Assembly: GCF_011947195.1 (NCBI RefSeq)
Contig: NZ_JAATVY010000040.1
Location: 1 to 43,830 of the forward strand
DNA: 43,830 bases
Direction of reading: 5' to 3'
From: Planosporangium thailandense
GTDB lineage: Bacteria; Actinomycetota; Actinomycetes; Mycobacteriales; Micromonosporaceae
Every line of letters begins with the position of its first letter. The stretch's first letter is position 1. The notes under the pieces are model-generated. The model did not search any database. It was given only the letters and a program-made list of their open reading frames with translations, and had not been told where the DNA came from. Of this stretch, positions 5,371-42,771 are shown piece by piece. The position numbers and the translations under genes are program-made.

Positions 5371-5448
5371 CCGGCCTACCGCACCCCCGGCCTACCGCAC
5401 CCCCGGCCTACCGCACCCCCGGCCTACGGCACCCCCGGTCTACGACGG
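5371..5448. repeat. 16-bp tandem repeat at the stop of the TIGR03086 gene
   Basis: Unit CCGGCCTACCGCACCC begins at 5371, 5387, 5403 and 5419 (one mismatch in the fourth copy). A partial fifth copy at 5435-5448 contains the TAG stop of the minus-strand gene that ends at 5440. Each copy carries CTA (TAG on the minus strand). Confidence 0.95.
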
Positions 5449-6057
5449 GCGCCGACCGAGGAACGCGACCAGCCGGTCCGCCGGGCCGGCCAGCGGCGAC
5501 ACGTCGACGGGTGGGGCGAAGCGGACAGGCCGGTCGTCGTCGGTGACGAAGAGGGGCGACAGCTCCAACAGCTCCTCGGCCAGGGGCGCCGGAATCGGGT
5601 GGTGGCGGCCGCACGCCCGGGCAACGTCCCATCCGTGTACCGCGATCTCGATGGCCCCGGTGGTCGTCACGATGCCGCCCGTGAGCGGGTAGCCGGCGAC
5701 GGAAACGGTGTGGCGGCGGTCCACGGCGGTCCAGGCGCCGAGCAGGTGGCGCGCCCGGTCGCGCAGGACGGCCGTCGGATCGGCGGGGGAGCCGTGGCCG
5801 GCGGCGGCCGCGCCGAGGTCGGTCCGTCCGACCCCGGAAGCCACGTCCACCCGTCCGGCGCCGATCGCCTCCTCCAGCGCCAGGAGCGAGTCGTCCAGGT
5901 GGGCCAGCAGGGTGCGCAGGTCCCAGCGGCGGCAGGGGGTCCGGTACGGCAGGGCCGCCGGCGTGACCCCGTGCAGGCTACCCAGGGTGTAGCTGATCGC
6001 CCGCTCCAGGAGAGTGACGCCCCCGGTCAGCGCCGTCGCCGCCGGTCCGCCGATCAT
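5440..6057 (-). CDS. TIGR03086-type DinB/mycothiol-isomerase-like protein, 205 aa
   Basis: Member of the actinobacterial TIGR03086 / maleylpyruvate-isomerase N-terminal-like (DinB) group: four-helix-bundle proteins with metal-binding His residues, some using mycothiol. Characteristic pieces are WDLRTLLAHLDDSLLALEEAI near residue 45, a central AVDRRHTV segment, and AIEIAVHGWDVARACGR near residue 140. The latter two supply His residues for a metal site. The ATG at 6055-6057 overlaps the stop of the sigma-factor gene as ATGA, so translation is coupled and the protein probably belongs to the regulon or function of that sigma factor. The exact reaction is unknown. Confidence 0.85.
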   Translation of the reverse strand: MIGGPAATALTGGVTLLERAISYTLGSLHGVTPAALPYRTPCRRWDLRTLLAHLDDSLLALEEAIGAGRVDVASGVGRTDLGAAAAGHGSPADPTAVLRDRARHLLGAWTAVDRRHTVSVAGYPLTGGIVTTTGAIEIAVHGWDVARACGRHHPIPAPLAEELLELSPLFVTDDDRPVRFAPPVDVSPLAGPADRLVAFLGRRPS

Positions 6058-7118
6058 CGCTGGTCCGGTGCCGGCGAGCCGGCTGTCGCGGTGGCGGGCC
6101 GGCTGTCCGGCCGGTCGTCGTGCCGGCTCTCCGACCGGTCCGCGGGCAGGCGGTCCGGCAGCCCGAAGGTCGCGAACAGGCGGACGTCGAAGAAGGACGC
6201 CACGTGGGTGACGCCGTCTTTGCCGAGGGTGAGTACCGGCAGGTTGAACGGCAGGTAGGTACCGTCCGGGCCGCGCATGTACAGGCCGAACGCCGGTTGG
6301 CCGTTCGCCCGGGTCGGTACCAGTCGCATGTCTCCGGGGCCCCGGGCCGGGCAGTGCGTGTCGACGAGTCGGGCGATGGCCTCGGCGCCCCGGTACCAGG
6401 AGGTGAAGGGCGGCATCTCCCAGACCGCGTCCTTGGTGAACAGCTCCACGATGCCGGCGATGTCCTTGGCCTCAAAGGCCGCGACGTACCGGTCGAGCAG
6501 TTCGCGCTGCTCCGGCTCGGTGGGCTCGACGATCTCCTCCTCCGTCAGGCCGGCCCGGTCGAGCTGGGCACGGGCGCGCTGGAGGATGCTGTTGACGGCG
6601 GTCGTCGTGGTGTCGAGCAGTTCGGCGACCTCCGCGGCCCGCCACTTCAGCACGTCCCGCAGGAGCAGCACGGCCCGCTGGCGGGGCGGCAGGTACTGCA
6701 GGGCGGCGATCATGGCCAACCGGACGCTCTGCCGGGCGGCGACGACCGCGGCTGGATCGGTCGTCTCGGCGGCGACCAGAGCGTCGGGCAACGGCTCCAG
6801 CCACGGCACCTCCGGCTGGTCGACCAGGGGGTCGCCGGGATCGGCGTTCGGCCCGCCGAGCCCGGTCGGCAGCGGCCTCCTGCCGCGGCTCTCCAGCGCG
6901 GTCAGGCAGGCCCGGGTGGCGATCCGGTACAGCCAGGTACGAAGCGACGACCGGCCCTCGAACCGGTCGTACGCGCGCCACGCCCGCAGATAGGTCTCCT
7001 GGACCAGATCCTCGGCGTCGTGCACCGAGCCGAGCATGCGGTAGCAGTGCGCCAGCAGTTCGCGCCGGTACGGGTCGGCCTGACGCAGGAAGTCCTCGTC
7101 CGCCGGGTTGTCTGCCAT
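6054..7118 (-). CDS. sigG: ECF sigma factor with SnoaL-like C-terminal domain (SigG/TIGR02960 type), 354 aa
   Basis: Sigma-70 region 2 spans about residues 10-85 (RRELLAHCYRMLGSVHDAEDLVQETYLRAWRAYD in part) and region 4 about 125-180 (LQYLPPRQRAVLLLRDVLKW, then a helix-turn-helix). A SnoaL-like domain of about 110 residues follows (RYVAAFEAKDIAGIVELFTKDAVWEMPP). This layout matches the TIGR02960 family that includes mycobacterial SigG; the SnoaL domain is thought to tune activity in place of a separate anti-sigma factor. I chose the ATG at 7116-7118 because AAGGA lies 8 nt upstream; an ATG at 7151 is possible. The tail after about residue 325 is Asp/Arg/Ser-rich and probably disordered. The gene is divergent from the ArsC-like gene. 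Confidence 0.9.
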   Translation of the reverse strand: MADNPADEDFLRQADPYRRELLAHCYRMLGSVHDAEDLVQETYLRAWRAYDRFEGRSSLRTWLYRIATRACLTALESRGRRPLPTGLGGPNADPGDPLVDQPEVPWLEPLPDALVAAETTDPAAVVAARQSVRLAMIAALQYLPPRQRAVLLLRDVLKWRAAEVAELLDTTTTAVNSILQRARAQLDRAGLTEEEIVEPTEPEQRELLDRYVAAFEAKDIAGIVELFTKDAVWEMPPFTSWYRGAEAIARLVDTHCPARGPGDMRLVPTRANGQPAFGLYMRGPDGTYLPFNLPVLTLGKDGVTHVASFFDVRLFATFGLPDRLPADRSESRHDDRPDSRPATATAGSPAPDQR

Positions 7119-7241
7119 AGCCACGATCCTTGTCGCCGGAGATGCTGTCACATCTGTTGACCCGGGAGCGGGTGGGAACTCATCGCCGTCAGCTTTCCAT
7201 CGACATAGTGGACCAGAATCCCGCCTGGGAGGATCCCCGTC

Positions 7242-7613
7242 ATGGAGCTGTGGAACAACCCGTCGTGCTCGAAGTGCGCGGCCGCTCGGACGACGTTGAC
7301 GCAGGCGGGGGTGCCGTTCCGGCTCCGCGCCTACCTGGAGCAGGCGCCGACCGCCGCGGAGTTGACCGAGGTGCTGCGTCGGCTCGGCGCGCGGCCGTGG
7401 GACATCTGCCGGCTGGGCGAGCCCGCGGCGACGGCCCGCGGGATGGCTCAGTGGCCCCGGGAGGAGGCGGACGTCCAGCGGTGGATCGAGGCGATGGTCG
7501 AGGCGCCCGAACTCATCCAGCGCCCGATCCTGCTACTCGACGACGGTTCCGCCGTCGTCGGCCGTACTCCCGAGGCGCTGGCGGAGGTCGTGCGGCGGGC
7601 GCGGCGCGGGTAG
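7242..7613 (+). CDS. ArsC/Spx-family thioredoxin-fold protein, 123 aa
   Basis: Single ArsC/Spx/YffB-type domain starting MELWNNPSCSKC. Both cysteines of a CxxC are at residues 9-12. The conserved RPI segment (LIQRPILLLDDG) near residue 91 has the Arg used for oxyanion or substrate contact. The partial match to arsenate reductase (single catalytic Cys) and the CxxC make either a reductase or an Spx-like redox protein possible. There is no arsenic operon nearby, so an arsenic role is not supported by context. A GGGAGGA-type SD precedes the ATG. The 123-bp spacer to the divergent sigma-factor gene is shared promoter space. Confidence 0.85.
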   Translation: MELWNNPSCSKCAAARTTLTQAGVPFRLRAYLEQAPTAAELTEVLRRLGARPWDICRLGEPAATARGMAQWPREEADVQRWIEAMVEAPELIQRPILLLDDGSAVVGRTPEALAEVVRRARRG

Positions 7614-7656
7614 CCGGCGCCGTGGCCCGGCCGGCGGCGGTCAGTGCTCGTCGCCG

Positions 7657-8436: not shown

Positions 8437-9801
8437 GTGGCTACTGACCGGGGAGTCGCCGAACGGCTGGGCCGACTGGTGGAGCGGGTGCTGGGCGCCG
8501 CCCTGCCGCTGCGGTTGCGGGGCTGGGACGGCTCGGAGTGGGGTCCGGAGGGCACCCCCGTGCTGGTGATCCGGGACCGCAAGGCGCTGCGCCGGCTGCT
8601 GTGGCAGCCCAACGAACTCGGTCTCGGCCGGGCGTACGTCGCCGGCGACCTCGAACTCGACGGCGATGTCTACGACGCCCTCGGCCGCCTGGAAGGGGTG
8701 CTGTGGCAGCAGCCGGAGCAGCACGGCAAGCCGGGCGGCCCCTCGCTGCTGGCCGGCATACTCGACCGCGAGGTGGTGCGGGAGGCGGTCGCGCTCGGCG
8801 CGGTCGGCCCGCAGCCGCGCCCACCCGCCGAGGAGGCGTCGCTGCGGGGGATCCGGCACAGCCTGAGCCGCGACCGGCGGGCCATCAGCCACCACTACGA
8901 CGTGGGCAACGACTTCTACCGGCTCGTACTCGGTGAGTCGATGGTCTACTCCTGCGCCTTCTGGCGCTCCGACAACCCCGGCTACGGCCTGGCCGACGCC
9001 CAGCGTGACAAGCTGGACCTGATCTGCCGCAAGCTGGCGCTCGGGCCCGGCATGCGGCTGCTGGACGTGGGCTGCGGCTGGGGTTCGCTCGCGATCCACG
9101 CCGCGCGCGAGTACGGCGCCTCGGTGGTCGGGGTGACCGTTTCCCGGGAGCAGGTCGAGTACGCCCGCAAACGGGTCGCCGAGGCCGGACTGACCGACCG
9201 GGTGCAGATCCGGCTGCAGGACTACCGCGAGGTCGACGACGACCCGTTCGACGCCATCTCCAGCGTCGGGATGGCCGAGCATGTCGGGGTGGAGCGTTAC
9301 GCCGAGTACGCCGCGCTGCTGTACCAGCGGCTGCGCCGGGGCGGCCGGCTGCTCAACCACCAGATCGCCGCGCTACACCCGGTCGAGGAGCCCGACAAGC
9401 CCGGTGGCGTGCTGGGCCGCCTGCGCGGGCGGCCGCGCTCGTTCATCGACGCCTACGTCTTCCCCGACGGGGAGCTGGCTCCGGTCGGGACCACCGTCTC
9501 CCTGATCGAGCAGGCCGGCTTCGAGGTCCGTGACGTGGAGGCGCTGCGCGAGCACTACGGCCGTACGTTGCGCGCCTGGGTGGCCAATCTCGAGGACAAC
9601 TGGGACGAGGTGGTCCGGCTGACCACCCCCGGCCGGGCCAGGGTCTGGCGGCTGTACATGGCAGGGTCGGCGCTGGCGTTCGAGGCCGGCCGGATCGGCG
9701 TCAACCAGATCCTGGCCGTCAAGGCCCAACGGGACGGTCGCAGCGGTATGCCGCCCACGCGGGAGTGGCTGCGCACCGCGTCGACGCCGCCGACGGACTG
9801 A
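8437..9801 (+). CDS. Cyclopropane-fatty-acyl-phospholipid synthase family methyltransferase, 454 aa
   Basis: SAM-dependent enzyme predicted to add a methylene (or methyl) group to unsaturated acyl chains of membrane phospholipids. The family-specific HYDVGNDFYRLVLGESMVYSCA segment lies at about 152-173. SAM motif I LDVGCGWG is at 209-216, followed by VVGVTVSREQ. A GMAEHVG segment in mid-domain and a basic C-terminal helical part complete the match. Length fits the long CFA/UfaA group. The GTG at 8437 follows GGGGAGGA closely and starts a sensible N-terminus; the frame is open further upstream (to 8362), but that part is Gly/Ala/Arg filler. Tandem repeats begin at its stop codon. Confidence 0.88.
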   Translation: MATDRGVAERLGRLVERVLGAALPLRLRGWDGSEWGPEGTPVLVIRDRKALRRLLWQPNELGLGRAYVAGDLELDGDVYDALGRLEGVLWQQPEQHGKPGGPSLLAGILDREVVREAVALGAVGPQPRPPAEEASLRGIRHSLSRDRRAISHHYDVGNDFYRLVLGESMVYSCAFWRSDNPGYGLADAQRDKLDLICRKLALGPGMRLLDVGCGWGSLAIHAAREYGASVVGVTVSREQVEYARKRVAEAGLTDRVQIRLQDYREVDDDPFDAISSVGMAEHVGVERYAEYAALLYQRLRRGGRLLNHQIAALHPVEEPDKPGGVLGRLRGRPRSFIDAYVFPDGELAPVGTTVSLIEQAGFEVRDVEALREHYGRTLRAWVANLEDNWDEVVRLTTPGRARVWRLYMAGSALAFEAGRIGVNQILAVKAQRDGRSGMPPTREWLRTASTPPTD

Positions 9802-9884
9802 CCCGGACCCGACGACCCGGACGCGGACCCGACGACCCCGACCCGGACGCGACGACCCGGCCCATCGATCCGCCCATCGATCCG
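9801..9884. repeat. 20-bp x3 and 12-bp x2 tandem repeats directly after the methyltransferase stop
   Basis: Three 20-bp copies (9801-9820, 9821-9840, 9841-9860) begin on the last base of the TGA stop, with consensus ACCCGGACCCGACGACCCGG. Two exact copies of CCCATCGATCCG follow (9861-9872, 9873-9884). Confidence 0.95.
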
Positions 9885-9935
9885 GATCGTACGTTTCGCT
9901 TTGCCCCGCATCGGGCAATTGCGCATATACGCTTC

Positions 9936-11411: not shown

Positions 11412-11430
11412 TGATCGTGTGCGGATCTCC

Positions 11431-11498
11431 CTCGCCCCACAGCCTCACTCGCCCCACAGCCTCATTCGCCCCACAGCCTCACTCACCCCACAGCGCGG
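11431..11498. repeat. 17-bp tandem repeat at the stop of the FAD oxidoreductase gene
   Basis: CTCGCCCCACAGCCTCA begins at 11431, 11448 and 11465 (one change). A fourth, more diverged copy at 11482-11498 encodes the last residues (LWGE) of the minus-strand gene. The TGA stop at 11479-11481 lies at the junction, and each copy ends in TCA, which reads TGA on the gene strand. Confidence 0.95.
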
Positions 11499-12432
11499 CC
11501 GCCCACGCGTCGTACCGGGGGCGCCACTCGTCGCGGTACCGGGTGCGCACCTCGGCCGGTAGCCGGCTGAGCACGTCCGCGCGGGTCACGTCGGCGTCGC
11601 CCGCGTGGATGAAGCGCAGGTGTACGACCGTCTGGCCGCGCAGCGGCTCGGGCAGCTCGGGCAGCGGGGGCAGCCGCAGGATCGCGACCGACGTCGTCGT
11701 CTCGTCGGGCAGCGACGAGGTCCAGGCGCGGTACGCGTGCAGCACGTCGGCCGCCACGGCGCCCGGGTAGAAGATGCCGCCGGCGTACAGGGTGGCCACC
11801 GGTACCAGGTCGATCTCGATGGACGTGACGATGCCGAAGTTGCCCTTGCCGCCGCGTACCGCCCAGAACAGGTCGGGGTGCTCGTCGGCGTCGACGTCGC
11901 GGAGCTGCCCGTCGGCGGTGACGATGCGCAGGCCGCGAACGTGGTCGGCGGCGTAGCCGTAGCGGCGGGCCAGCAGGCCGAGGCCACCGCCGACGGTGTA
12001 CCCGACCGCGCCGACATCCGACGACGAGCCGCTCAGCGGCGCGAGCCCGTACGGGGCGGCGGCTTCGATGACCCGGGCCCACTTCACGCCGGCGCCGACG
12101 CGGGCGGTGCGGGTGGCCGGATCGACGGTCACCTCGTCGAGTCGGGAAGTGTTGACGAGCACGCCGCCGATCGCGGCGGCGACCGCACCGTGGCCGGTCG
12201 CCTGTACGGCCACCGGCAACCCGCGCTCGGCCGCCCAGCCGACGGCGGCGGCCACGTCGGCGGCGTCGGCGGCGCCGACGGCGACGAGGGGGCGGTGCGC
12301 GGTGGCGAGGTTCCAGGCCGCGATCTCGGCGTCGAAGCCGTCGTCTCCGGGTACGTAGACGGGGCCCGACACCTGGCTGGCCAGGTCGGTGACGGCCAGC
12401 ACGGTGGACGGTTCGGATTGGACTGTGGTCAC
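11479..12432 (-). CDS. Short FAD-binding (PCMH/VAO-type) oxidoreductase, 317 aa
   Basis: The FAD-binding PCMH domain spans about residues 45-215: RPLVAVGAADAADVAAAVGWA, a TGHGAVAAAIGGVLVNTSRL loop, and GYTVGGGLGLLARRYGYAADHV for the dinucleotide-binding part. Relatives of the FAD_binding_4/BBE group are about 450 residues and end in a berberine-bridge-like domain. Here the substrate domain stops after about 100 residues and is replaced by a short Arg/Trp-rich tail (RYRDEWRPRYDAWAAALWGE). It may be a truncated or remodelled enzyme; the tandem repeat at its stop suggests the 3' end has been rearranged. The start shown is the ORF's 5' limit, a GTG at 12432, with GAGAG-like purines upstream. Function is unknown beyond flavin-dependent oxidation. 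Confidence 0.8.
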   Translation of the reverse strand: MTTVQSEPSTVLAVTDLASQVSGPVYVPGDDGFDAEIAAWNLATAHRPLVAVGAADAADVAAAVGWAAERGLPVAVQATGHGAVAAAIGGVLVNTSRLDEVTVDPATRTARVGAGVKWARVIEAAAPYGLAPLSGSSSDVGAVGYTVGGGLGLLARRYGYAADHVRGLRIVTADGQLRDVDADEHPDLFWAVRGGKGNFGIVTSIEIDLVPVATLYAGGIFYPGAVAADVLHAYRAWTSSLPDETTTSVAILRLPPLPELPEPLRGQTVVHLRFIHAGDADVTRADVLSRLPAEVRTRYRDEWRPRYDAWAAALWGE

Positions 12433-14534: not shown

Positions 14535-15188
14535 ATGTCGAACGTTCAGACCGCACAGGCCCACTCCGCGACCGACCTCTCCGCGACCGACATCTCCGCC
14601 ACCAACCTCTCCGCCACCGGCGTCGGGGCGCGCCGGCCGGCGCTGCTCCTGGCCGGACCGGTCGCTGTCGTGTCGATCGGGCTCGTTTTCGCCTCCGCCG
14701 CGAGGACCGGCGGCGACGCCGTGACCATGGCGACGAACGGCCTGGGCATCGCGTCCAGCGTCGCCGCGCTGGCCGCGCTCATCGCGATGGTCGTCGGGCT
14801 GGCCGGGCTGCCGGCGCAGGCGCCGGCGCTCCGGCACGGCTTCGGCCGGTTCGCGTGGGTGGTCGCCGAGCTGGGCACCGTTCTGGCGGCGGGCGGGTAC
14901 TGGTCCAGCGTGTTCGTCCAGCCCGGCCTCGCACACGTCGCTCCGGGGGCCGTACGCGACGGCATCACCAGCGTCACCGCCGGCTTCGTCGTCTCGTACA
15001 TGGTGATGGGGCTGGGCTGGGCTCTCGTCGCGATCGCGCTGCTGCGCGCCAGGCTGATCGGCGCCAGCGGCTGGTTCCTGATCCTCGCCTCGCTCGTCGC
15101 GATCTCGCCGGCGCCGTTCCGCTACCTGCCGCTCGCGGTCGCCGTGACCGTCGCCTGCGGTCTGCGGCTCGGCCGTCGCCGGGTCTGA
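14535..15188 (+). CDS. Small integral membrane protein, 217 aa
   Basis: After a soluble N-terminus of about 33 residues built from a 15-nt repeat (SATDL/SATDI/SATNL/SATG), there are about six hydrophobic segments: PALLLAGPVAVVSIGLVFA, IASSVAALAALIAMVVGLA, a GTVLAAGGYWSSVFV region, VVSYMVMGLGWALVAIALL, GWFLILASLVAIS and LPLAVAVTVACGL. No enzymatic motif is recognisable. AGGGAG lies 6 nt before the ATG. The gene is divergent from the two-component system at 12580-14354, so it is a plausible regulated target. The family is not identified. Confidence 0.8.
   Translation: MSNVQTAQAHSATDLSATDISATNLSATGVGARRPALLLAGPVAVVSIGLVFASAARTGGDAVTMATNGLGIASSVAALAALIAMVVGLAGLPAQAPALRHGFGRFAWVVAELGTVLAAGGYWSSVFVQPGLAHVAPGAVRDGITSVTAGFVVSYMVMGLGWALVAIALLRARLIGASGWFLILASLVAISPAPFRYLPLAVAVTVACGLRLGRRRV
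14566..14620 (+). repeat. 15-bp in-frame repeat near the 5' end of the membrane-protein gene
   Basis: About 3.5 copies of a TCCGC(G/C)ACCGACCTC-type unit encode the SAT[DN][LI] series at residues 12-28. The frame is kept. Confidence 0.85.
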
Positions 15189-15255
15189 TGCCGGGCTGCC
15201 GCCGCGCGTCCGATGCCGGGCCGGCGCCGCGTCCGACGCGGCGCCGGTTGCCGCC
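15184..15255. repeat. About 24-bp repeat at the membrane-protein stop
   Basis: Three related segments start at 15184 (TCTGATGCCGGGC), 15209 (TCCGATGCCGGGC) and 15232 (TCCGACGCGGCGC). The first contains the TGA stop at 15186-15188. Confidence 0.75.
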
Positions 15256-16574: not shown

Positions 16575-16593
16575 CCTGGCCCGTGGCGGCGCG

Positions 16594-16614
16594 CCCAGCG
16601 CTCAGCGTTCAGCG
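16594..16614. repeat. 7-bp triplet repeat at the phosphatase stop
   Basis: CCCAGCG, CTCAGCG and TTCAGCG lie in tandem; the last copy carries the TGA stop of the minus-strand gene ending at 16609. Confidence 0.7.
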
Positions 16615-21069: not shown

Positions 21070-21105
21070 ACCCCGGCCGGCGCGATAATCACACGGTCGC
21101 GGCGA

Positions 21106-21525
21106 TCAGACGGTCGCGGCGCCGCCGATCAGGACGTACGTCTTGCGGATCTTCTCCCGTACCACCCAGGTCCCGCGCCATCCGAGGGGCAGCACGAGCA
21201 GCGAGCCGGGTCCGATCTCGGCGCTCACGCCGTCCTCGCCCGTGACGGTGCCCGAGCCGCTGAGGATCTGGCAGACCTCCGTTAGGTCGGGTCTGGCGGC
21301 GGTGAACTCGCCCGGGTCGCACTCCCAGATGCCGGCCGAGGTCGGAGCGGCGGACTGCCAGACGGCCAGCGCCGACTCGACCTGGCCCGTCAGGCTCGTC
21401 GGCTTGGGCTGCGCGGCAGGCAGCGCCGCCGCGTCGGCGGCGACGTGCCGCAGGCTGGCAGGGGCCGTCGCGGTCCCAGGGGCCGTCGCGGTCTCAGGGG
21501 CCGTCGCAGTCTGAGGATTGGTCAC
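21106..21525 (-). CDS. Cupin-domain protein, 139 aa
   Basis: A single small-barrel cupin of the EutQ/DUF861 kind: WECDPGEFTAARPDLTEVCQILSGSGTVTGEDG and GPGSLLVLPLGWRGTWVVREKIRK. These proteins often accompany amine-catabolism oxidoreductases. The first 22 residues are a repeat (ETATAP/GTATAP) encoded by an 18-bp tandem repeat and are probably disordered. The GTG at 21523-21525 has AGGAAG upstream. It is the last gene of the amine-transport operon, 52 bp after the oxidoreductase gene. A metal ligand set is not complete by eye, so a binding or sensor role is as likely as catalysis. Confidence 0.82.
   Translation of the reverse strand: MTNPQTATAPETATAPGTATAPASLRHVAADAAALPAAQPKPTSLTGQVESALAVWQSAAPTSAGIWECDPGEFTAARPDLTEVCQILSGSGTVTGEDGVSAEIGPGSLLVLPLGWRGTWVVREKIRKTYVLIGGAATV
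21459..21512 (-). repeat. 18-bp in-frame repeat at the 5' end of the cupin gene
   Basis: Three copies of CAGGGGCCGTCGCGGTCC (21459, 21477, 21495) differ at two positions and encode the TATAPx series in the N-terminal tail. Confidence 0.95.
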
Positions 21526-23014: not shown

Positions 23015-23068
23015 GTTTGCGTGCGGTGCCGCGTTTGCGTGCGGTGCCGCGTTTGCGTACGGTGCCGC
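23015..23068. repeat. 18-bp tandem repeat between the oxidoreductase start and the ATPase stop
   Basis: GTTTGCGTGCGGTGCCGC at 23015 and 23033, with one change at 23051. It ends 2 bp before the TAG stop (23071-23073) of the ABC ATPase gene. Confidence 0.95.
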
Positions 23069-23070
23069 GG

Positions 23071-29646: not shown

Positions 29647-29688
29647 TCACACCCCGTCGAGAGGGCATCACACCTCGTCGAGAGGGAC
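29647..29688. repeat. 21-bp tandem duplication at the flavoprotein stop
   Basis: Two copies (29647-29667 and 29668-29688), sharing TCACACC and CGTCGAGAGGG with a few changes. The second copy contains the TGA stop (29668-29670) and the last codons of the minus-strand gene. Confidence 0.9.
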
Positions 29689-30900: not shown

Positions 30901-30912
30901 TGCGTGCCTCCG

Positions 30913-30976
30913 TTTCCATGGTCCGTCATTGCCATGGTCCGTCGTTGCCATGGTCCGCCGTTTCCACGGTCCGTGT
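30913..30976. repeat. 16-bp tandem repeat between folE and the flavoprotein gene
   Basis: Four copies start at 30913, 30929, 30945 and 30961; the core CCATGGTCCGTC changes slightly in the last. The core includes the palindrome CCATGG. The tract begins just upstream of the flavoprotein SD and ends 8 bp before the folE stop. Confidence 0.95.
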
Positions 30977-32468: not shown

Positions 32469-32561
32469 GCGACCGCGATCGTGATGGCGATCGCGATTGC
32501 GATCGAGCAGGGCCAGGGTTTCAGATCCAGGGGTTCAGATTCAGGGCTTCAGATCCAGGGC
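32469..32561. repeat. 12-bp and 14-bp tandem repeats at the M23 peptidase stop
   Basis: Three 12-bp units at 32469, 32481 and 32493 share the core GCGATC. Three 14-bp units at 32520, 32534 and 32548 follow (TTCAGATCCAGGGG-type). The last 14-bp unit encodes the final Pro-Trp-Ile and the TGA stop (32549-32551) of the minus-strand gene. Confidence 0.92.
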
Positions 32562-33787
32562 ATCGGGTCGACGGGGCGGCCGCCCAGGCGTACCTCGAAG
32601 TGCAGGTGCGGTCCGGTGGCGGCGCCCGTCGACCCGACCAGTCCGATGACCTGTCCGGCGCTCACCTGCTGCCCCGACGAGACAAGGATCTTCTGCTGGT
32701 GTCCGTAGCAGGTGGTCAGCCGCTGACCGTCCGCCTGGCCGTGTTCGATACACGTGTAGTTGCCGTACCCGCCGTTCCAGCCGGCCTGGACCACGCGGCC
32801 GGCCGCGGCGGCGACGATCTGCGCGCCCGCCGGTGCGCCGATGTCGACGCCGGCGTGCAGCTGCCAGACGTGGTAGTACGGGTCGAACCGCATGCCGAAC
32901 GGGCTGGTGATCGGGCCGGGCGCCGGCCGGCGCAGCTTCCCGCCCCCGTACCCGGCCGTCGTACCCGTACCCGCAGCCGCAGCCGCGCCCGGCGCTGGCG
33001 CGGCCATCGCCTGTTGCGCCTGGCTGTTGACCTGCCGCTGCAGGTCCAGCGCCTCGGTCTGCCGGCGCGCGAGCTCGGCGCGGCCGGCATCGACCGCCGC
33101 GGTGAGGGCGAGTACCCGGCCTTCGGGGGTACCGACGGCGCCCTGCGCGGCAGCGGCGCCCGGCCCGGTGGGCCCGGCCCCGTCGGTGAGCAGCGCGACG
33201 AGCGGCGGGACCGAACCGACCTGGCGCTGCGCCGCCGCGAGATCTGCACGGGTCCGGATGAGGACGTTCTGGAGATACTGCTCGCGGTGCTGCACGTCGC
33301 TCAGCTGGGCGACGAGGCGGGCCTGCGGCGTGGTGGCCGGGTCGACCGGCGGCTGCGGGTACAGGTCGGCGCCCGGATCGGCGGCGATGATGCCGGCAGC
33401 GTCACCGGGCGGCACGATGGCGCCGGGCGTGGACGCCGTGGGGGCTGGTACACCCGGCTGCGGCGCCGGCTGCCCAGCGGCCGGCCGCGTCCCCGGCGAA
33501 CCGCCGGCCGGCGCAGCCGGGCTGCCCGGTGCGGCGGGTACGGGCTGGACGGGCGTCGGCGCCGGGGTCTTGACACGCGGTGGCGGCAGCAGTGACGGCA
33601 GCGGTGGCAGCGGGGCGGTGCTCGGCGTCGGCAGGGGCAGTGGCAGCGGGGCGGTGGGCAGCGGCAGCGGTACCGGTAGCGGGACCGGCGGCACGCCGGC
33701 GTGCGCGGGCACGCTCGATGACACGACGAGCGTCGCGGTGACAGCCGCCGACAGCGCGCCACCCACGTACCATCTCACGTTCCTCAT
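32549..33787 (-). CDS. Secreted M23-family peptidoglycan peptidase, 412 aa
   Basis: Signal peptide (MRNVRWYVGGALSAAVTATL, then SSSVPAHA). A Pro-rich, wall-spanning segment covers about residues 30-140, followed by a helical, probably coiled-coil segment at about 155-260 (LSDVQHREQYLQNVLIRTRADLAAAQ). The LytM/M23 domain at about 295-410 has zinc ligands in HAGVDIGAP and in the final GPHLHFEVRLGG, with the intermediate YGHQQ. It is predicted to cut cross-bridges in the cell wall. The start is ambiguous because three in-frame ATGs (33787, 33802, 33817) each sit in a copy of a 15-bp repeat; I give the innermost, which leaves a normal signal peptide. Confidence 0.92.
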   Translation of the reverse strand: MRNVRWYVGGALSAAVTATLVVSSSVPAHAGVPPVPLPVPLPLPTAPLPLPLPTPSTAPLPPLPSLLPPPRVKTPAPTPVQPVPAAPGSPAAPAGGSPGTRPAAGQPAPQPGVPAPTASTPGAIVPPGDAAGIIAADPGADLYPQPPVDPATTPQARLVAQLSDVQHREQYLQNVLIRTRADLAAAQRQVGSVPPLVALLTDGAGPTGPGAAAAQGAVGTPEGRVLALTAAVDAGRAELARRQTEALDLQRQVNSQAQQAMAAPAPGAAAAAGTGTTAGYGGGKLRRPAPGPITSPFGMRFDPYYHVWQLHAGVDIGAPAGAQIVAAAAGRVVQAGWNGGYGNYTCIEHGQADGQRLTTCYGHQQKILVSSGQQVSAGQVIGLVGSTGAATGPHLHFEVRLGGRPVDPMPWI

Positions 33788-33828
33788 AGCCGCCGCCCTC
33801 ATCGCCGCCGCCCTCATAGCCGCCGCCT
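33784..33828 (-). repeat. 15-bp repeat that multiplies the M23 start codon
   Basis: TCATAGCCGCCGCCC (33784), TCATCGCCGCCGCCC (33799) and TCATAGCCGCCGCCT (33814). On the gene strand each copy reads G-rich purine-containing sequence followed by ATG, giving three in-frame possible starts (MRAAAMRAAAMRN). Confidence 0.95.
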
Positions 33829-34749: not shown

Positions 34750-36438
34750 GTGAACACGCCACGGCCCGCGCAACGGGTACCCGTCACGGGGGCCGACGCC
34801 GCGCTGGACGAGGCCGCCGAGCGTGCCCGGCTCACGGCCGCGCTCGATGACGCGGTCGCGTCGCAGCTGGGGTTCGACCCCGGCGCCGCCTTCGCGCTCG
34901 CGACCGAGGTCGAGCGCGCCGCCGAGCGACTCGCTGACGACGCGCTACGGATGCGGGCCCGGTTGCTGCGCGCGTACGCGATGGATCGCAGCGGTGACGC
35001 CGGCTCCTGCGGTCGGCTCGCATGGGAGGTCAACCGCTGGGCGGCCGAGCACGGACACCGACCCCTGCTCTCGCTGAGCCACCGGCGGCTGTCGACCGTG
35101 TACCTCCAGCTCGGTGACCTGGCCTCCTGCCTGGACCACGCCGTTCAGTGCGTGGAAATGCTCGACGACACCACCAGGCCGCACGAGCGGGCCAACTGCC
35201 TCATCGTTCTCGGCGACGCGCTCGGCCTGACCGGAAGCCTCGACGAGGCCCGCCGGCGCTACCGGGCCGCGGAGGAGATTCTGGCCGGTATCGGAGACGT
35301 CGAGCGCCAGCTCGTGGTGCTCAACAACCTGGCGGCGACCGAGTACGACGCGGGGGAGTGGGACCGGGCGTGGTGGGCCGCCGAGCGGATGGTCGCGCTG
35401 GCCGACGCCAACGAGCTGCCGCTGGACGCCAACTACCTGGACACCGTGGCGCGCGCCCAGATGGGGTTGGGCCGGTACGGCGACGCCGCCCGGACCTTGG
35501 AGAGCTGGCTGGTGCCCACGGGCGTGGAGGACCTGGCGCCGGACGTCTCGGCCGAGATCGGGCTCACCCTGGCCGAGGTGCAGCGCCTACAGGGCGACCT
35601 TCGGCAGGCGCAGACCACCCTGGACCGTTGCCGTCAGCTGTGCGATGAGCGGGGGCTGGCCGGCCTGCGGGTACGGGTCCTCGCCGAGCAGGCTGAGCTG
35701 TACGCCGCGGCTGGGGAGTTCCAGCGGGCATTCGAGACCCACAAGAGCTTCCACGCCGCCCACGAGGAGCTGCGCTCGCAGGAGCGGGAGGCGCAGGCCC
35801 GGATCCGGCAGGCGATGTTCGAGACCGAGGAGGCCCGTCAGGAGGCGGCGCGGTTCCGCGACCAGGCCCGGCGGGATCCCCTGACCGGGCTGCGCAATCG
35901 ACGTTTCGTCGACGAGAACCTGCCGGCGCTGCTCGCGCGGGCGCGCGACAGCGGGGCTCCGCTCACCGCGGCGCTCGTCGACCTCGACCACTTCAAGCGG
36001 ATCAACGACACCCTCTCGCACGACGTCGGCGACCAGGTGCTGGTCACCGTGGCCGGCCTGCTCGCGTCCGCCGTCGAGGGGCTCCTCGACGGGCACGTCG
36101 AAGGGCACGTCGAAGGGCACGTCGAGGAGCGCCCGGAGCGGTCGGCGGGTGGCGCCGCCGAGGCCGGCGCGGGCGGATTCGCGGCCCGGCTGGGCGGCGA
36201 GGAGTTCGTCCTCGTGTTCACCGACACCGGCGCCGAGGACGCGGTGCGCCGCCTCGAGGACGTACGGCTCGCGGTCAGCTCGTACCCGTGGTCGCCGATC
36301 ACCGGGGACCTCGCGGTGACGGTGAGCATCGGGGTCGCCACGGCCGGGCCGGACAGTACCCAGCGGAGCCTGCTCCAGCAGGCCGACCAGAACCTGTACG
36401 CGGCCAAGCGCGCCGGCCGCGACCGCGTCGTCAACTGA
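34750..36438 (+). CDS. TPR-repeat diguanylate cyclase (GGDEF), 562 aa
   Basis: Paralogue of the 1032-2771 protein with the same order: helical TPR region at about residues 25-370 (WEVNRWAAEHGHRPLLSLSHRRL, VLNNLAATEYDAGEWDRAWWAAERM), a short linker helix, and a GGDEF domain from about 385. DLDHFKRIND binds metal and GGEEF is at 482-486. The I-site position reads GAGG, so there is no RxxD. Between the first half of the GGDEF domain and GGEEF there is an insertion of about 30 residues including three GHVE copies from a 12-bp repeat; it probably forms a surface loop. The GTG at 34750 follows GAGAGG closely. No membrane segment. Confidence 0.88.
   Translation: MNTPRPAQRVPVTGADAALDEAAERARLTAALDDAVASQLGFDPGAAFALATEVERAAERLADDALRMRARLLRAYAMDRSGDAGSCGRLAWEVNRWAAEHGHRPLLSLSHRRLSTVYLQLGDLASCLDHAVQCVEMLDDTTRPHERANCLIVLGDALGLTGSLDEARRRYRAAEEILAGIGDVERQLVVLNNLAATEYDAGEWDRAWWAAERMVALADANELPLDANYLDTVARAQMGLGRYGDAARTLESWLVPTGVEDLAPDVSAEIGLTLAEVQRLQGDLRQAQTTLDRCRQLCDERGLAGLRVRVLAEQAELYAAAGEFQRAFETHKSFHAAHEELRSQEREAQARIRQAMFETEEARQEAARFRDQARRDPLTGLRNRRFVDENLPALLARARDSGAPLTAALVDLDHFKRINDTLSHDVGDQVLVTVAGLLASAVEGLLDGHVEGHVEGHVEERPERSAGGAAEAGAGGFAARLGGEEFVLVFTDTGAEDAVRRLEDVRLAVSSYPWSPITGDLAVTVSIGVATAGPDSTQRSLLQQADQNLYAAKRAGRDRVVN
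36091..36126 (+). repeat. 12-bp in-frame repeat inside the GGDEF domain
   Basis: GGGCACGTCGAA at 36091 and 36103, and GGGCACGTCGAG at 36115, encoding GHVE three times. Confidence 0.95.
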
Positions 36439-36487
36439 GTCGTTCACTGGGATCGTTCGTCGGGTCATTCGCTGAGTCGTTCACTGA
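36427..36487. repeat. 12-13-bp tandem repeat starting in the last codons of the GGDEF gene
   Basis: GTCGTCAACTGA (36427-36438, the final Val-Val-Asn-stop) is followed by GTCGTTCACTGG, GATCGTTCGTCGG, GTCATTCGCTGA and GTCGTTCACTGA, ending at 36487. Copies 1, 4 and 5 retain TGA. Confidence 0.9.
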
Positions 36488-36509: not shown

Positions 36510-37676
36510 TCAGGCGAGGACGGGGACCAGGCAGGCGGCGAAGACGAGGTAGAACACGGCCGCGAACGACAGGGCCTTGGCGGTGAACCTCCGTACGCGC
36601 AGCAGGGTCAGCAGGTACCCGATCGCGGCCATGGTCACGATTCCGGAGATCACCAGTGCCGGGGTGAAGTGCCACGGGGTGAACAGCAGGCCCAGTCCGC
36701 TCGGAACGGTGGCCTGGATCATCATGGCGCCCGAGATGTTGGCCAGGGCCAGCCTGGTCTTGCCCTGGCGGACCCAGATGATCGCGTTCATGATCTCGGG
36801 CAGCTCGGTCGCGATCGGAGACAGCAACAGCGCGGTCACGGCGGCCGGCAGCCCGAGCATCGGCCCGATGGCGTCGAGCTGATGGACGAAAAGCTGCGAC
36901 GCGCCGAAGATGACGGCCAGTGTGGCCAGGGTCTGTACCGCGATCGCCCACGTCGCCGGAGTAGCCCGCCGGCGCTGAAGCAGCAGCGGCTCCAGTTCCT
37001 CGCCCTCGCCGTGCTCGCCGCCGCCGCGGATCTCGCGCCAGAAGTACACCGCGTAGGCGGCGAAGAACAGCAGCCCCAGCCACGGTTTGATCGCGAACGC
37101 CACCAGGCCGAGGGCCACCTTCACGACGAAGATGGCGAGGAACCAGCGCTGGTCACGGGCCAGCTTGGGCAGGTCCCCGGCGTCGATGTCCCCGGTGTTG
37201 ACGTCCCCGGTGTTGACGTCCCCGGCGTTGACGTCCCCGGCGTTGACGTCCCCGGTGTTGACGGCCCTGGCATTGACGTCCCTGGTGTCGCTGTCGCCGG
37301 GGTCGACGCCGCCGCTGGCGGGTCGGTCGCCGGCCGGTACGGGCGCCTTCGTGGTGGACCCGGTGGCTCGGGCACGGCGGCGGCGGGCCAGCAACATCCA
37401 GCCGGTCACGCCGTACGCGACCGTGGCGAGCGCCAGCGGGCCGCCCATGGCGGCGCCGACCCCGATGTCCTTCTGGGTGCTGCCGGTGCCGAACACGACG
37501 GCCACGAACGTGACGACGCTCTCGGGCAGGGCGGTGCCGAACGCCGCGAGGATGGTGCCGACGGCGAGCGGGCCGACCTTTAGCCGTTGACCCAGCCACT
37601 CCACGGCGTTGATGAACCATTCACACGCCAGGTAGATCACCGCGGCGCACGCGATCAGCAGTACGAAGTGAATCAC
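36510..37676 (-). CDS. CaCA-family cation exchanger (sodium/calcium antiporter type), 388 aa
   Basis: Two inverted Na_Ca_ex halves, each with about five membrane segments. Alpha-repeat motifs are GTILAAFGTALPESVVTF near residue 40 and LLLSPIATELPEIMNAIIW near residue 270; the acidic Glu in each (ALPES, ELPEI) coordinates the cation. The central cytosolic loop holds an Asp-rich repeat (NTGDV/NAGDV) encoded by a 15-bp tandem repeat. The start is a GTG at 37674-37676 (VIHFVLL) with no close SD. A Mn2+-type yybP-ykoY riboswitch in the leader points to Mn2+ (or Mn2+/Ca2+) efflux rather than plain calcium exchange. No partner gene is in the operon. Confidence 0.9.
   Translation of the reverse strand: MIHFVLLIACAAVIYLACEWFINAVEWLGQRLKVGPLAVGTILAAFGTALPESVVTFVAVVFGTGSTQKDIGVGAAMGGPLALATVAYGVTGWMLLARRRRARATGSTTKAPVPAGDRPASGGVDPGDSDTRDVNARAVNTGDVNAGDVNAGDVNTGDVNTGDIDAGDLPKLARDQRWFLAIFVVKVALGLVAFAIKPWLGLLFFAAYAVYFWREIRGGGEHGEGEELEPLLLQRRRATPATWAIAVQTLATLAVIFGASQLFVHQLDAIGPMLGLPAAVTALLLSPIATELPEIMNAIIWVRQGKTRLALANISGAMMIQATVPSGLGLLFTPWHFTPALVISGIVTMAAIGYLLTLLRVRRFTAKALSFAAVFYLVFAACLVPVLA
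37171..37305 (-). repeat. 15-bp in-frame repeat, about nine copies, in the exchanger loop
   Basis: Units of the ACGTCCCCGGTGTTG type from 37171 to 37305: four near-identical copies at 37201-37260, flanked by copies that decay outward on both sides. They encode [ND]-[TA]-G-D-V. Confidence 0.95.
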
Positions 37677-37713: not shown

Positions 37714-37761
37714 TTCGAGCTCTTATGCGCAGACCTCGACCACGCGGCGACGCATACGTCA

Positions 37762-37946: not shown

Positions 37947-37990
37947 ACTACTTGACGGGACTACTTGACGGGCGCGCCTACTTGGAGGGC
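37947..37990. repeat. 13-17-bp repeat at the YcnI-like gene stop
   Basis: ACTACTTGACGGG at 37947 and 37960 and CTACTTGGAGGGC at 37978. The last contains the TAG stop and the final Pro-Ser-Lys codons of the minus-strand gene. Each copy reads AAGTAG on the gene strand. Confidence 0.9.
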
Positions 37991-38742
37991 GCGGGACCGG
38001 CCGGGGAGGCGCGGCGAACCGCTCGCAGGATGATCCAGGCGTCGAGGCCGAGCCCGGCGACCAGGCCGACGAGTAGGCCGGCGCCGAGGATGCCGTACGT
38101 GCCGCCGCCGTCGCCGGACCCGCCGTTCGGCGCGGCCGCCGCACCGTTGTCGGACTGGCCCCCGGATTGACCGCCGTCGCCGTGCACGTGGCTGCCGTTC
38201 GGGTCGCCGTTGCCGGCCGCTCCCTGGTTGACCAGCGTCACCGTCGGTGCGGGGTTGGCCGACTGGTCGGCCCACCGTACGACGAGGCCGTCGGAGTAGG
38301 TCTGCACGACCGTGAACGTGGTCCGGCTGGTGTCCGGCATCGGTCCGAGGGAGACGGAGAGGTCGATCGGGCTGGTCGGGCTCGACGGCGGGGTGCCGAT
38401 CCGGATCCAGGTGACCTCCGACGGCACCTCGGTCGTGGTCGTGCCGTGGATGAGCTGAGCCGGGTGGTCCAGCTTGCGCATGGTGGTGTTCGGGGCCCAG
38501 TCGTTGACCGACATCGGGTAGATCTCGGCGATCGGCGTGGCCTCCGGCGGTATGAGCTCGACTCTCGTCGTGTACGCGCCGGGGCGGTCGTCGGAGATGT
38601 GGAAGGTCAGCTCGGCCGGGCCACCCCGAGGCGCTTCGGACGGGCTGACGGTGACGTCGGCGGCCGCGGGTCCGGCGAACCCCAACACCGCCACCAGGGC
38701 GGCGCCGAGCGTGACCAGCCAGGTGCGCCAGTTGCGAATCAT
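37978..38742 (-). CDS. YcnI-like (DUF1775) secreted, membrane-anchored protein, 254 aa
   Basis: Signal peptide (WLVTLGAALVAVLGFAGPAAA) followed by DVTVSPSEAPRGGPAELTFHISDD and VELIPPEATPIAEIYP, the YcnI_N pattern. The domain runs to about residue 165. A Gly/Ser/Asp linker with HVHGDGG and a C-terminal membrane helix (ILGAGLLVGLVAGLGLDAWIIL) follow. In copper-binding YcnI the mature protein starts with His (HVTV); here that residue is Asp. The ATG at 38740-38742 has a GGAGGAGCAGG SD. The frame continues upstream through a 15-bp repeat carrying further ATGs, so a longer form is possible. The DUF neighbour upstream is on the same strand. Confidence 0.82.
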   Translation of the reverse strand: MIRNWRTWLVTLGAALVAVLGFAGPAAADVTVSPSEAPRGGPAELTFHISDDRPGAYTTRVELIPPEATPIAEIYPMSVNDWAPNTTMRKLDHPAQLIHGTTTTEVPSEVTWIRIGTPPSSPTSPIDLSVSLGPMPDTSRTTFTVVQTYSDGLVVRWADQSANPAPTVTLVNQGAAGNGDPNGSHVHGDGGQSGGQSDNGAAAAPNGGSGDGGGTYGILGAGLLVGLVAGLGLDAWIILRAVRRASPAGPAPSK

Positions 38743-38765
38743 GGACCTGCTCCTCCTGCGGACGC

Positions 38766-38840
38766 TGCTGCCGACGGCTCTGCTCATGACGGCGCTGCTC
38801 ATGACGGCGCTCCTCATGACGGCGCTCCTCATGACGGTGT
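38766..38840 (-). repeat. 15-bp repeat carrying multiple ATGs upstream of the YcnI-like gene
   Basis: Copies TGCTCATGACGGCGC at 38781 and 38796, TCCTCATGACGGCGC at 38811 and a variant at 38826; a decayed copy at 38766. On the gene strand each good copy carries ATG in the same frame as the YcnI-like CDS (MRSAV/MSSAV series). Confidence 0.95.
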
Positions 38841-38888
38841 GGTGGGGGCACGGACCGGCCGGCCCGTGCCCCCACCACCTGGCTGTCA

Positions 38889-40148
38889 TCAGTTGACGGT
38901 GATGCGTACCGCGTCGAAGGCGGGGATCTCGTTGGCGCGCTGCATCATCGGGATCCGGTGGCTACCGTCGCCGGCCCACGAGGCGCACTGCGCGACGCCC
39001 CGCTGTGGAAGGCCGGGCACGTTGATGACGATCTGGTCGGGCTGGGCGCTACCACCGTTGTCCTCGGTGGCGACGAAGAACGCGGGCGGCGGCGACGGGT
39101 CCGGCGCGGCCTGGGTGTTGTCGAGCATCCGGCAGGCGGTGTGGAAGTGACCGCGCGTCAGGCCCTGGGCGTCCAGCAGCGACATCTCCACGTAGTACCC
39201 GCCCTTTGCGGCGGCGAGGAACCGGTCGCGGATGAGGTTGCGGGTGCTGACCCGGATCTGGAACGGCTGACCGGCCTGTACCTGCTGGGGCGCCTGGGTG
39301 ATCAGCAGCGACGGGTTCTTCGCGGCGTCGCCGACCTCGCCCATGTTGGTCGCCACGCACCGGTTGCCGTTCTGGAAACCGTCGTGCGGCTGCAGCTTGC
39401 TGCTGCCCTGGCACTGCTGGGCGAGGATGCCGAGGTTGTTCGGGTCGTTGACGTTGGGGTTCTTGCCGCCGTTGTTGTTCTGGCCACCGTTGTTCTGACC
39501 ACCATTGTTGCCGCCGTTGTTCTGACCGCCGTTGTTCTGACCGCCGCCGTTGTTGTTGGCGACGTTCACCGTGCAGGCGGCCAGCCCGCCCAGGTTGTTG
39601 GCCTGGGCTCCGGTGCGGTTGAGCGCCGTGGTGATCCGGTTCAGCGTGGTGGCGCGTGCGTTCTTCAGCGGAGCCAGGATCTGGTTGTTGATGAACGTCT
39701 GGTTGGCCCGCTGGTTGGCCGCCAGCTTGTTGTTGGCGTTGGCGATCTGGGAGTCCAACTGGGCCAGATCCTGGTCCACTGCGGACTTGGCCGCCGGCGG
39801 CACATTCGGCAACTTGTCGGCGACGCTCGGGCAGTTCACCGTCTTCGTCTGGGCCGCGGCCTGGGTGGCCTGCGGGCAGCCGGCGTTGGGCTGCTGGCCG
39901 TCACCCCAGTGGCTGCGGACCTGCCGGCCGTTCTGCACGGTGACGGTGTCTTGCTGGCCGTTGGGTGCGGCCGCGCCGGGAGCCACCGGGCCGCACTTGG
40001 CCGAGGCCACAGGGCGCAGCGTCTTCGCGGACGACACCCGTTGCACGGTCAGGAGGGCGCCGAACACCACGAGGACGGTAGCTACCGCGGCGATCCGTTT
40101 GTTTCTGCTGGCGCGTAAGCGTCCGCGCCGTTGAGCCGACCGGTCCAT
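38889..40148 (-). CDS. Secreted or membrane-tethered Asn/Gln-rich protein of unknown function, 419 aa
   Basis: A basic N-terminus and one hydrophobic segment (IAAVATVLVVFGALLTV, residues 19-35) indicate a signal anchor. Residues about 45-200 form a Cys-containing region with a helical stretch rich in Asn and Gln (LAQLDSQIANANNKLAANQRANQTFINNQIL). A low-complexity NNGGQNNGG run follows at about 205-235. The C-terminal domain, about 240-419, includes GHFHTACRMLDN, FFVATEDNGG and PGLPQRGVAQCASWAGDGSHRIPMM. About six Cys suggest disulfides outside the cell. I do not recognise the family. The ATG at 40146-40148 has GAAGG upstream. It may be co-transcribed with the YcnI-like gene. Confidence 0.75.
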   Translation of the reverse strand: MDRSAQRRGRLRASRNKRIAAVATVLVVFGALLTVQRVSSAKTLRPVASAKCGPVAPGAAAPNGQQDTVTVQNGRQVRSHWGDGQQPNAGCPQATQAAAQTKTVNCPSVADKLPNVPPAAKSAVDQDLAQLDSQIANANNKLAANQRANQTFINNQILAPLKNARATTLNRITTALNRTGAQANNLGGLAACTVNVANNNGGGQNNGGQNNGGNNGGQNNGGQNNNGGKNPNVNDPNNLGILAQQCQGSSKLQPHDGFQNGNRCVATNMGEVGDAAKNPSLLITQAPQQVQAGQPFQIRVSTRNLIRDRFLAAAKGGYYVEMSLLDAQGLTRGHFHTACRMLDNTQAAPDPSPPPAFFVATEDNGGSAQPDQIVINVPGLPQRGVAQCASWAGDGSHRIPMMQRANEIPAFDAVRITVN

Positions 40149-40805: not shown

Positions 40806-41960
<1,155 letters not shown>

Positions 41961-41972
41961 TGTCGGCGCCTC

Positions 41973-42057
41973 TGGATTGTCAGCACCCCTGGATTGTCAG
42001 CACCCCTGGATTGTCAGCACCCCTGGATTGTCAGCACCCCTGGATTGTCAGCGCAGC
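41973..42057. repeat. 17-bp tandem repeat at the HAD gene stop
   Basis: TGGATTGTCAGCACCCC is exact at 41973, 41990, 42007 and 42024; the fifth copy (42041) diverges into coding sequence. The TGA stop of the minus-strand HAD gene (42031-42033) lies inside the fourth copy, and every copy carries TCA (TGA on the gene strand). Confidence 0.97.
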
Positions 42058-42684
42058 AACTGCGGCGGTGACATCGTCGACGATCGCGTCCGGTGCGTGG
42101 ATGATCGAATCCCAGGTGCGACCACGGCGCATCCAGATCGTGCGTAGCCCGACGTCCCGACCGCCCGCCACGTCACGCACCGGGCAGTCGCCGACCATCC
42201 AGCCACCGTCTTCGAGCCGAGCTTCACAGCGCTGCGCCGCGACCTGGAACATCCGAGGATCCGGCTTGGCGACGCCGACCTCCTCCGAGATGGCGAGGGC
42301 GTCGATGTGCGACTCCAGACCCGTACGTCGAATCTTGGCCGATTGCTGCGCGGTATTACCGTTCGTCGCAATGGCCACCCGCCAGCCCTCCCGACGCAGC
42401 CGGTCCAGGGCGAGAGGCACCTGCGGATCCAACTCGACCAGCGCGACGATCTGCTCGCGAAAGCTGGTCACGAGCACATCCAACGGCTCGTCCAGGCCGT
42501 ACCGCTCGCGAACCGCGGTGAGAAACCGCGGGCGCGGAACGAAGCCGTCACCGTCGGCGTTGACCAGCCACTGAACCTCTCCCGGCGCAAGCCCGTGCTC
42601 GGCTACGAACTGTGTGGCCCAACGCCGGAACGGCACTTCACGGTCGAGAAGAGTGTTGTCCAGGTCGAAGATCACCAGCGGCAC
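42031..42684 (-). CDS. HAD-superfamily hydrolase, 217 aa
   Basis: Motif I DLDNTLLD with the nucleophile Asp at residue 7 and acid/base Asp two later; a helical cap at about 15-85; motif II Thr/Ser in VAIATNGN near 107; motif III Lys in GVAKPDPRMF; and motif IV Asp in MVGDCPVRDVAGG. It is a subfamily IA phosphatase of the phosphoglycolate-phosphatase / YjjG-like kind; the substrate is unknown. The GTG at 42682-42684 is the start. The last residues (TIQGC) are encoded by the tandem repeat at 41973-42057, so the C-terminus has been reshaped by it. Confidence 0.9.
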   Translation of the reverse strand: MPLVIFDLDNTLLDREVPFRRWATQFVAEHGLAPGEVQWLVNADGDGFVPRPRFLTAVRERYGLDEPLDVLVTSFREQIVALVELDPQVPLALDRLRREGWRVAIATNGNTAQQSAKIRRTGLESHIDALAISEEVGVAKPDPRMFQVAAQRCEARLEDGGWMVGDCPVRDVAGGRDVGLRTIWMRRGRTWDSIIHAPDAIVDDVTAAVAALTIQGC

Positions 42685-42733
42685 GCCACGACCCTATCCC
42701 GCGCCGTCGGCACGGGTGAGTTCGTACATGCGT

Positions 42734-42771
42734 TTAGAGGGGTAGCAGCTTCAGAGGGGTGGCACTAGAGA
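42734..42771. repeat. 16-bp repeat at the TIGR03089 gene stop
   Basis: TTAGAGGGGTAGCAGC (42734) and TTCAGAGGGGTGGCAC (42750), then a partial TAGAGA. The TAG stop of the minus-strand gene is at 42765-42767. Confidence 0.75.

What the first reader, a model, noticed from the sequence alone, without database searches (positions are those of the whole stretch)
5371..42771. Tandem repeats anchored at stop codons throughout the window
At least a dozen genes have short tandem repeats that begin in their last codons or at the stop and spread into the spacer: 5371-5448, 9801-9860, 11431-11498, 15184-15255, 16594-16614, 29647-29688, 32520-32561, 36427-36487, 37947-37990, 41973-42057 and 42734-42771, with 23015-23068 ending 2 bp from a stop. 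Unit sequences are unrelated, so this is not one mobile repeat. In most tracts each copy reproduces the stop triplet (TGA or TAG), giving a ladder of stops. Unit lengths here (7, 12-14, 16, 17, 20, 21, about 24) are mostly not multiples of 3. Genes on both strands and of unrelated function are affected. This suggests a duplication process, or a selective effect, targeted to the 3' ends of genes, such as variable-length 3' UTRs or back-up stops.
Basis: seen in the sequence. Interest (0 to 1): 0.8.

Follow-up and report, generated by a model that had tools for sequence, protein, structure and literature searches.

The report
Stop-codon tandem duplications in an actinomycete
Many genes of this GC-rich bacterium end in short head-to-tail copies of their own last codons; most of this fits harmless copying errors that survive only where they do no damage, but in this genome the copies sit more tightly on the stop codon than that explains.

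Summary
The repeats are real. In 1.58 Mb of the same genome outside the window, arrays cover 7.1% of the 60 bp after stops and 1.4% of the 60 bp before starts.

The bias is not special to this genome: GC-rich loci of other bacteria show it. Coding units are mostly multiples of 3; units across stops mostly are not. Orthologues seldom share arrays. Array regions are less folded than other 3' ends and show no C-over-G skew and no clear excess of second in-frame stops. This fits frequent short tandem duplication filtered by selection: a duplication across a stop leaves the protein unchanged.

Something remains. In this genome, less surely in two others of its genus, and not in the non-genus sequences sampled, duplication junctions crowd just behind the stop, most in the youngest arrays. 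Selection alone does not explain that, and the bin was chosen after seeing data. The window is also about six times denser than the rest, unexplained.

The parts
5370..5443 (-). 16-mer x4.6 at the TAG of gene 5440-6057 (MDMPI_N); G002 orthologue has a different 15-mer at +15..50
9800..9860 (+). 20-mer x3.0 at the TGA of gene 8437-9801 (CMAS); none found in three orthologues; a 12-mer x2.1 follows at 9860-9884
11427..11494 (-). 17-mer x4.0; first copy is the last codons plus TGA of gene 11479-12432 (FAD_binding_4)
15171..15247 (.). Array in a spacer between two starts; not at a supported stop
16591..16614 (.). Weak 7-mer tract between two convergent stops (TRF 34; resampled regions reach 36 in 21-33 of 897)
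21088..21121 (-).
23015..23069 (-). 18-mer x3.1 starting 1 nt after the TAG of gene 23071-24267 (ABC_tran); none found in two orthologues
29647..29686 (-). 21-mer x1.9; copy of the last codons plus TGA of gene 29668-30951 (Pyr_redox_2); none found in G001 and G003
30911..30974 (-).
32513..32561 (-). 14-mer x3.5 made of the conserved end PWI-stop of the M23 peptidase gene 32549-33817; G002 has a 15-mer x7.1 of the same end with other boundaries; G003 none
36434..36487 (+). 12-mer x4.4 at the TGA of gene 34750-36438
37947..37993 (-). 13/17-mer tract across the TAG of gene 37978-38889 (DUF1775); none in G001 and G002, a weak unlike one (score 48) in G003
41957..42052 (-). 17-mer x5.6 across the TGA of gene 42031-42684 (HAD hydrolase)
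42734..42771 (-). Two imperfect copies near the TAG at 42765; not found by TRF at score 30 or more

Best explanation
Short tandem duplications (units about 10-30 nt) arise often in GC-rich DNA. How they arise (slippage, or fill-in of staggered breaks and end joining) is inferred. Selection then sorts them. Inside genes most survivors are multiples of 3; near starts few survive; across a stop or in the spacer behind it any length survives, because the first copy keeps the reading frame and the stop and all further copies fall outside the protein. The ladder of stops is a by-product. Arrays turn over fast and have no shown function. In this genome, and perhaps its genus, a second, unexplained component adds duplications whose junction lies right behind the stop.
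For: Frame filter in G000: coding units multiples of 3 in 148 of 167, stop-spanning 5 of 25, start-spanning 4 of 4; among arrays of 95% match or more, coding 39 multiples of 3 and 1 not. Non-3n stop-spanning arrays enter the CDS by no more than one unit plus 3 nt in 19 of 20. Stop side 0.071 against start side 0.014. Same bias in GC-rich loci of other bacteria. Roughly flat over 0-60 bp in pooled convergent spacers. Turnover: unrelated arrays at the folE stop in three species. Array regions less folded than controls and no C-over-G skew.
Against: The filter should act in all genomes, yet a 0-7 nt junction excess is seen in G000 (31 v 45, ratio 3.3, p 1.9e-6) and not in non-genus sequences (4 v 46, ratio 0.43); Fisher between the two ranges from 3.8e-5 to 0.021 over the eight cut-off settings tried. 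It is strongest in arrays of 95% or more (12 at 0-7 v 13 at 8-59), so slower decay of the coding copy does not explain it. A higher duplication rate in coding DNA of this genome is not seen (ratio 0.77 v 0.72). In convergent spacers density falls beyond 60-90 bp, which a pure filter does not predict. G001+G002 stop-spanning units are multiples of 3 in 6 of 13. The window's density is not explained.
Confidence: 0.6

Rival explanations
1. Targeted process: in this genus something linked to translation stop or to the DNA just behind it (for example an R-loop or a nick at the edge of translated RNA; speculation) starts duplications there, so the last codons and the stop are copied right behind the stop.
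For: Junction excess at -3..+7 in G000 (36 arrays) and 8 arrays at -3..+3 in G001+G002 (3.7-4.9 per kb), not outside the genus; strongest in fresh arrays; two duplications with different boundaries end at the same M23 stop in two species; no excess of stop-like triplets near junctions of arrays away from stops, so not such a DNA motif; more often at convergent stops (27 of 44 v 403 of 1078, window included).
Against: No difference in codon bias (p 0.87) and no clear one in stop type (TAA 0 of 44 v 73 of 1078). G001+G002 alone show no significant excess at 0-7 (4 v 14). The bin was chosen after seeing the data, and only 23% of the genome was sampled.
Confidence: 0.25
2. Functional 3' elements: back-up stops, terminators or variable 3' UTRs kept by selection.
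For: Placement at 3' ends; copies of a spanning array often carry the stop triplet; stops in all three frames in 5 of 61 array regions v 20 of 599 controls.
Against: Second in-frame stop 22 of 61 v 167 of 599; array regions less folded (z -0.25 v -1.54, p 0.012) than controls; no C-over-G skew (p 0.21); seldom shared between orthologues.
Confidence: 0.06
3. One dispersed repeat family inserted at stops, like MIRUs.
For: MIRUs are known repeats of mycobacteria (PMC2734929, passages); 16 related unit pairs is somewhat above the shuffles.
Against: Only 16 related pairs among 137 units, shuffles 2 to 9; in spanning arrays the first copy is the gene's own codons.
Confidence: 0.03
4. Assembly or gene-calling artefact.
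For: Draft genome of 114 contigs; my caller missed 6 of 29 stops in a control.
Against: The window's stop tracts are all under 100 bp; the same 3' bias appears in other assemblies, single-contig G030 among them; Pfam supports 8 of 9 genes.
Confidence: 0.03

Closest known systems
Bacterial minisatellites / VNTRs
   Same: Head-to-tail units of about 8-40 nt, few copies, in spacers and, as multiples of 3, in genes; arrays differ between species
   Different: Here the duplicated unit is often the end of a gene with its stop, with a junction excess right behind the stop in this genome; strain polymorphism not tested
Tandem repeats of Borg elements (PMC9879509, abstract and passages seen)
   Same: Unrelated units, independent and fast origin, coding units all multiples of 3, intergenic ones mostly not (14-38% divisible by three)
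   Different: Borg repeats are perfect, A-enriched and on archaeal elements; here imperfect, GC-rich and in a bacterial genome; no stop anchoring in the passages seen
Mycobacterial MIRU-VNTR, e.g. the rnc-fpg spacer (PMC2734929, passages seen)
   Same: Repeats in a spacer behind a stop, present in some species only, variable between isolates
   Different: MIRUs are 40-100 bp repeats at 41 places in one genome (that they are one related family is recalled); here mostly unrelated short units

Membership tests
Bacterial minisatellite / VNTR | Head-to-tail copies beyond chance | tested here: met
   71 of 897 regions v 4-10 in five resamplings
Bacterial minisatellite / VNTR | Copy number varies between strains | not testable with these tools
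   one genome per species held; arrays differ between species
MIRU | One related family of 40-100 bp units (relatedness recalled) | tested here: not met
   16 related pairs of 137 units, shuffles 2-9; strong stop-tract units 12-21 nt
Intrinsic terminator | More stable fold than expected | tested here: not met
   z -0.25 in 61 array regions v -1.54 in 150 of 599 controls, 60 letter shuffles each
Rho utilisation site | C-rich, G-poor RNA strand | tested here: not met
   crude test only: C-G skew 0.037 v 0.015, p 0.21
Back-up (tandem) stop codons | Extra in-frame stops beyond controls | tested here: not met
   22 of 61 v 167 of 599; all three frames 5 of 61 v 20 of 599, not tested for significance
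Borg-type tandem repeats | Perfect units with A enrichment | tested here: not met
   match 64-100% in 55 stop-spanning cases of all genomes; array regions 73% GC

The most novel reading that the evidence does not exclude
In this genus a process tied to real stop codons copies the last 10-30 nt of genes, stop included, directly behind the stop, again and again and independently in different species, leaving junctions within about -3 to +7 nt of the stop: a mutation process that respects gene ends.
Probability: 0.22. Interest if true: 0.8.

Novelty: new variant of a known kind. Interest (0 to 1): 0.45.

Why it matters
That GC-rich bacterial genomes collect short tandem duplications at gene ends, with a strong frame filter, gives a ready reading of where such duplications are tolerated and how stop-side spacers grow. 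If the junction peak at the stop holds in whole genomes of this genus, it would be evidence for a duplication process coupled to the place where translation ends, testable with mutation-accumulation lines.

Tried and rejected
Stop-like DNA motif at the junction: not enriched near junctions of arrays away from stops. Slower decay of the coding copy as cause of the peak: rejected, fresh arrays show it most (12 v 13 arrays). More duplication in coding DNA of this genome: not seen. Expression: no codon-bias difference. Microhomology in fresh two-copy arrays: mixed, -1 to 11 nt, no clear answer. Recurrence at orthologous stops: 3 both, 8 own only, 2 relative only, 30 none of 43 pairs, p 0.10, too few. 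Regional effect: the four G002 pieces that hold the orthologous region have 10 stop hits in 74 genes, other G002 pieces 8 in 142 (sums); suggestive only.

Paper searches for this pattern listed no report of stop-anchored arrays, but the lists were capped: 20 of 111, 20 of 80 (15), 15 of 200 (45), 15 of 116 (46), 12 of 711 (48), 12 of 19 (50), 10 of 23 (66), 1 of 1 (67). Beyond listings I saw passages of four papers only.

Weak points: several bins and cut-offs were looked at before the 0-7 nt bin was fixed; arrays between close convergent stops were counted for both genes and once, with the smaller |J|, which favours small J in every set alike; pieces of 20 kb cut some genes at their ends; start positions from my caller are less sure than stops (14 of 23 exact); TRF chance hits also rise with GC.
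Full report
What is there. The window is a whole contig (G000:C50, 43,830 bp, 71.6% GC) of a 7.01 Mb draft genome of 114 contigs. In stop-spanning arrays the first copy is the gene's own end, stop included: the window genes ending ...LWGE...PLDEV...AATV...PWI and ...VVN show it.

Is it more than chance and wider than the window? Yes. Of 897 own 3' regions 71 hold an array at TRF 50 or more, against 4 to 10 in five Markov resamplings. Outside the window (1,583,288 bp, 1452 genes) arrays cover 2626 of 37,224 bases in the first 60 after stops and 741 of 52,458 in the 60 before starts. Contigs differ: on C44 it is the reverse, 0 of 1682 against 71 of 1922. The window is a dense patch: 14 of 37 genes against 91 of 1452 at stops (p 5e-8) and 9 of 37 against 27 of 1452 at starts. 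Stop hits elsewhere are mildly clustered (chi-square per df 1.65 over 80 pieces). I have no explanation for the patch.

Is it special to this genome? The 3' bias is not. G001 and G002 (same genus) show it at score 50, though G001 loses it at score 70 (0.0027 v 0.0020). Of eight other genomes of the family or order, G004, G006, G007, G017 and G030 lean to the stop side, G013 and G016 had none on either side, and G022 went slightly the other way. Loci from named species at GC 0.66 or more (34 loci) show 3.7-6.2% after stops and 0.8-1.0% before starts; the bin 0.62-0.66 (16 loci) shows next to none. Actinomycetota show it in both upper bins; Proteobacteria at GC 0.69 and above (104 of 1757 v 0 of 2529 bases, three loci) and hardly at 0.66-0.69 (26 of 1936 v 26 of 2674) (taxa assigned by me from record titles). 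Array density rises with GC: score 70 or more per 100 kb is 0.7 below GC 0.62 (30 loci) and 11.0 above 0.715 (12 loci); part of such a rise can be chance matching.

How it most likely works. Shown: in G000 coding units are multiples of 3 in 148 of 167 and stop-spanning ones in 5 of 25; in G001+G002 58 of 65 and 6 of 13. Non-3n stop-spanning arrays enter the gene by at most one unit plus 3 nt in 19 of 20. Junctions are rare within 20 nt of starts in G000 (6 of the arrays outside the window). In convergent spacers pooled over genomes density is roughly flat over the first 60 bp, 1.0 to 3.3 per kb, and falls beyond. Inferred: duplications fall widely and selection keeps the harmless ones. A duplication across a stop is harmless because its first copy keeps frame and stop. 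Actinomycete mismatch repair by NucS is reported not to correct short indels (PMC8228993, abstract and passages), which may help but was not tested here.

Function. Array regions are less folded than other 3' regions (z -0.25 in 61 against -1.54 in 150 of 599 controls, p 0.012), have no C-over-G skew (p 0.21) and no clear excess of in-frame second stops (22 of 61 against 167 of 599); stops in all three frames are in 5 of 61 against 20 of 599, which I did not test. Orthologues seldom share arrays. At the folE stop three species have unrelated arrays. At the M23 stop two species have arrays of the same conserved gene end with different boundaries, and a third has none. The genes ending at 9801, 21069, 21106, 21578, 23071 and 29668 have arrays in the window and none in the orthologues whose stop could be read. 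The genes at 5440, 29587 and 33885 have an unlike array in G002, and 37978 a weak unlike one in G003. This fits turnover, not a conserved element.

What remains. If only selection shaped the pattern, the junction between first and second copy should lie evenly over 0-60 nt behind the stop. In G000 it does not: 31 arrays at 0-7 nt (3.72 per kb) and 45 at 8-59 nt (1.14 per kb), p 1.9e-6; restricted to spacers of 40 nt or more and well-scored genes, 14 and 28. Counted per gene without merging it is 34 and 62 (p 1.9e-5, one-sided). G001+G002 have 4 and 14 in these bins, no excess, but 8 arrays at -3..+3. Non-genus sequences (8 genomes and 34 loci) have 4 and 46. Fisher tests of G000 against them range from 3.8e-5 to 0.021 over eight settings. 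The excess is strongest in arrays of 95% or more, is not due to a stop-like motif, codon bias or more coding duplication, shows no clear link to stop type, and favours convergent stops (27 of 44 v 403 of 1078). I cannot tell a targeted process from an unknown selective effect or from a post-hoc choice of bin; hence 0.22 for the bold reading.

Prior work. Borg repeats show the same frame rule and independent origin (PMC9879509, abstract and passages); prokaryote satellites have been surveyed (PMC6749651, passages); a repeat-filled spacer behind rnc is known in the M. tuberculosis complex (PMC2734929, passages). Searches, with capped lists, named no paper on arrays anchored at stops; the library lacks most subscription journals.

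Noticed in passing
window 34798-34890 (+): ARAGORN predicts a tRNA-Val(cac) inside the 5' part of the called gene 34750-36438; the gene start or the tRNA call needs checking.
   Followed up: no
window 37173-37288, 38749-38837, 39452-39546, 41060-41149: Arrays with 15-nt or other 3n units inside called genes (38749-38837 only inside the longest ORF of its gene), among them a pentapeptide-repeat stretch in a sodium/calcium exchanger homologue.
   Followed up: no
L266, gene 2058-2858: 17-mer x10 array just behind a TAG stop, the highest-scoring array listed.
   Followed up: no
L265-L266 (G000:C93:160001-200000): Second dense patch in the own genome: 10 of 32 genes with an array at the stop.
   Followed up: no
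window 5372-5447 and L146: G002 has about 960 bp with a further called gene where the window has only the 16-mer array between two syntenic genes.
   Followed up: partly
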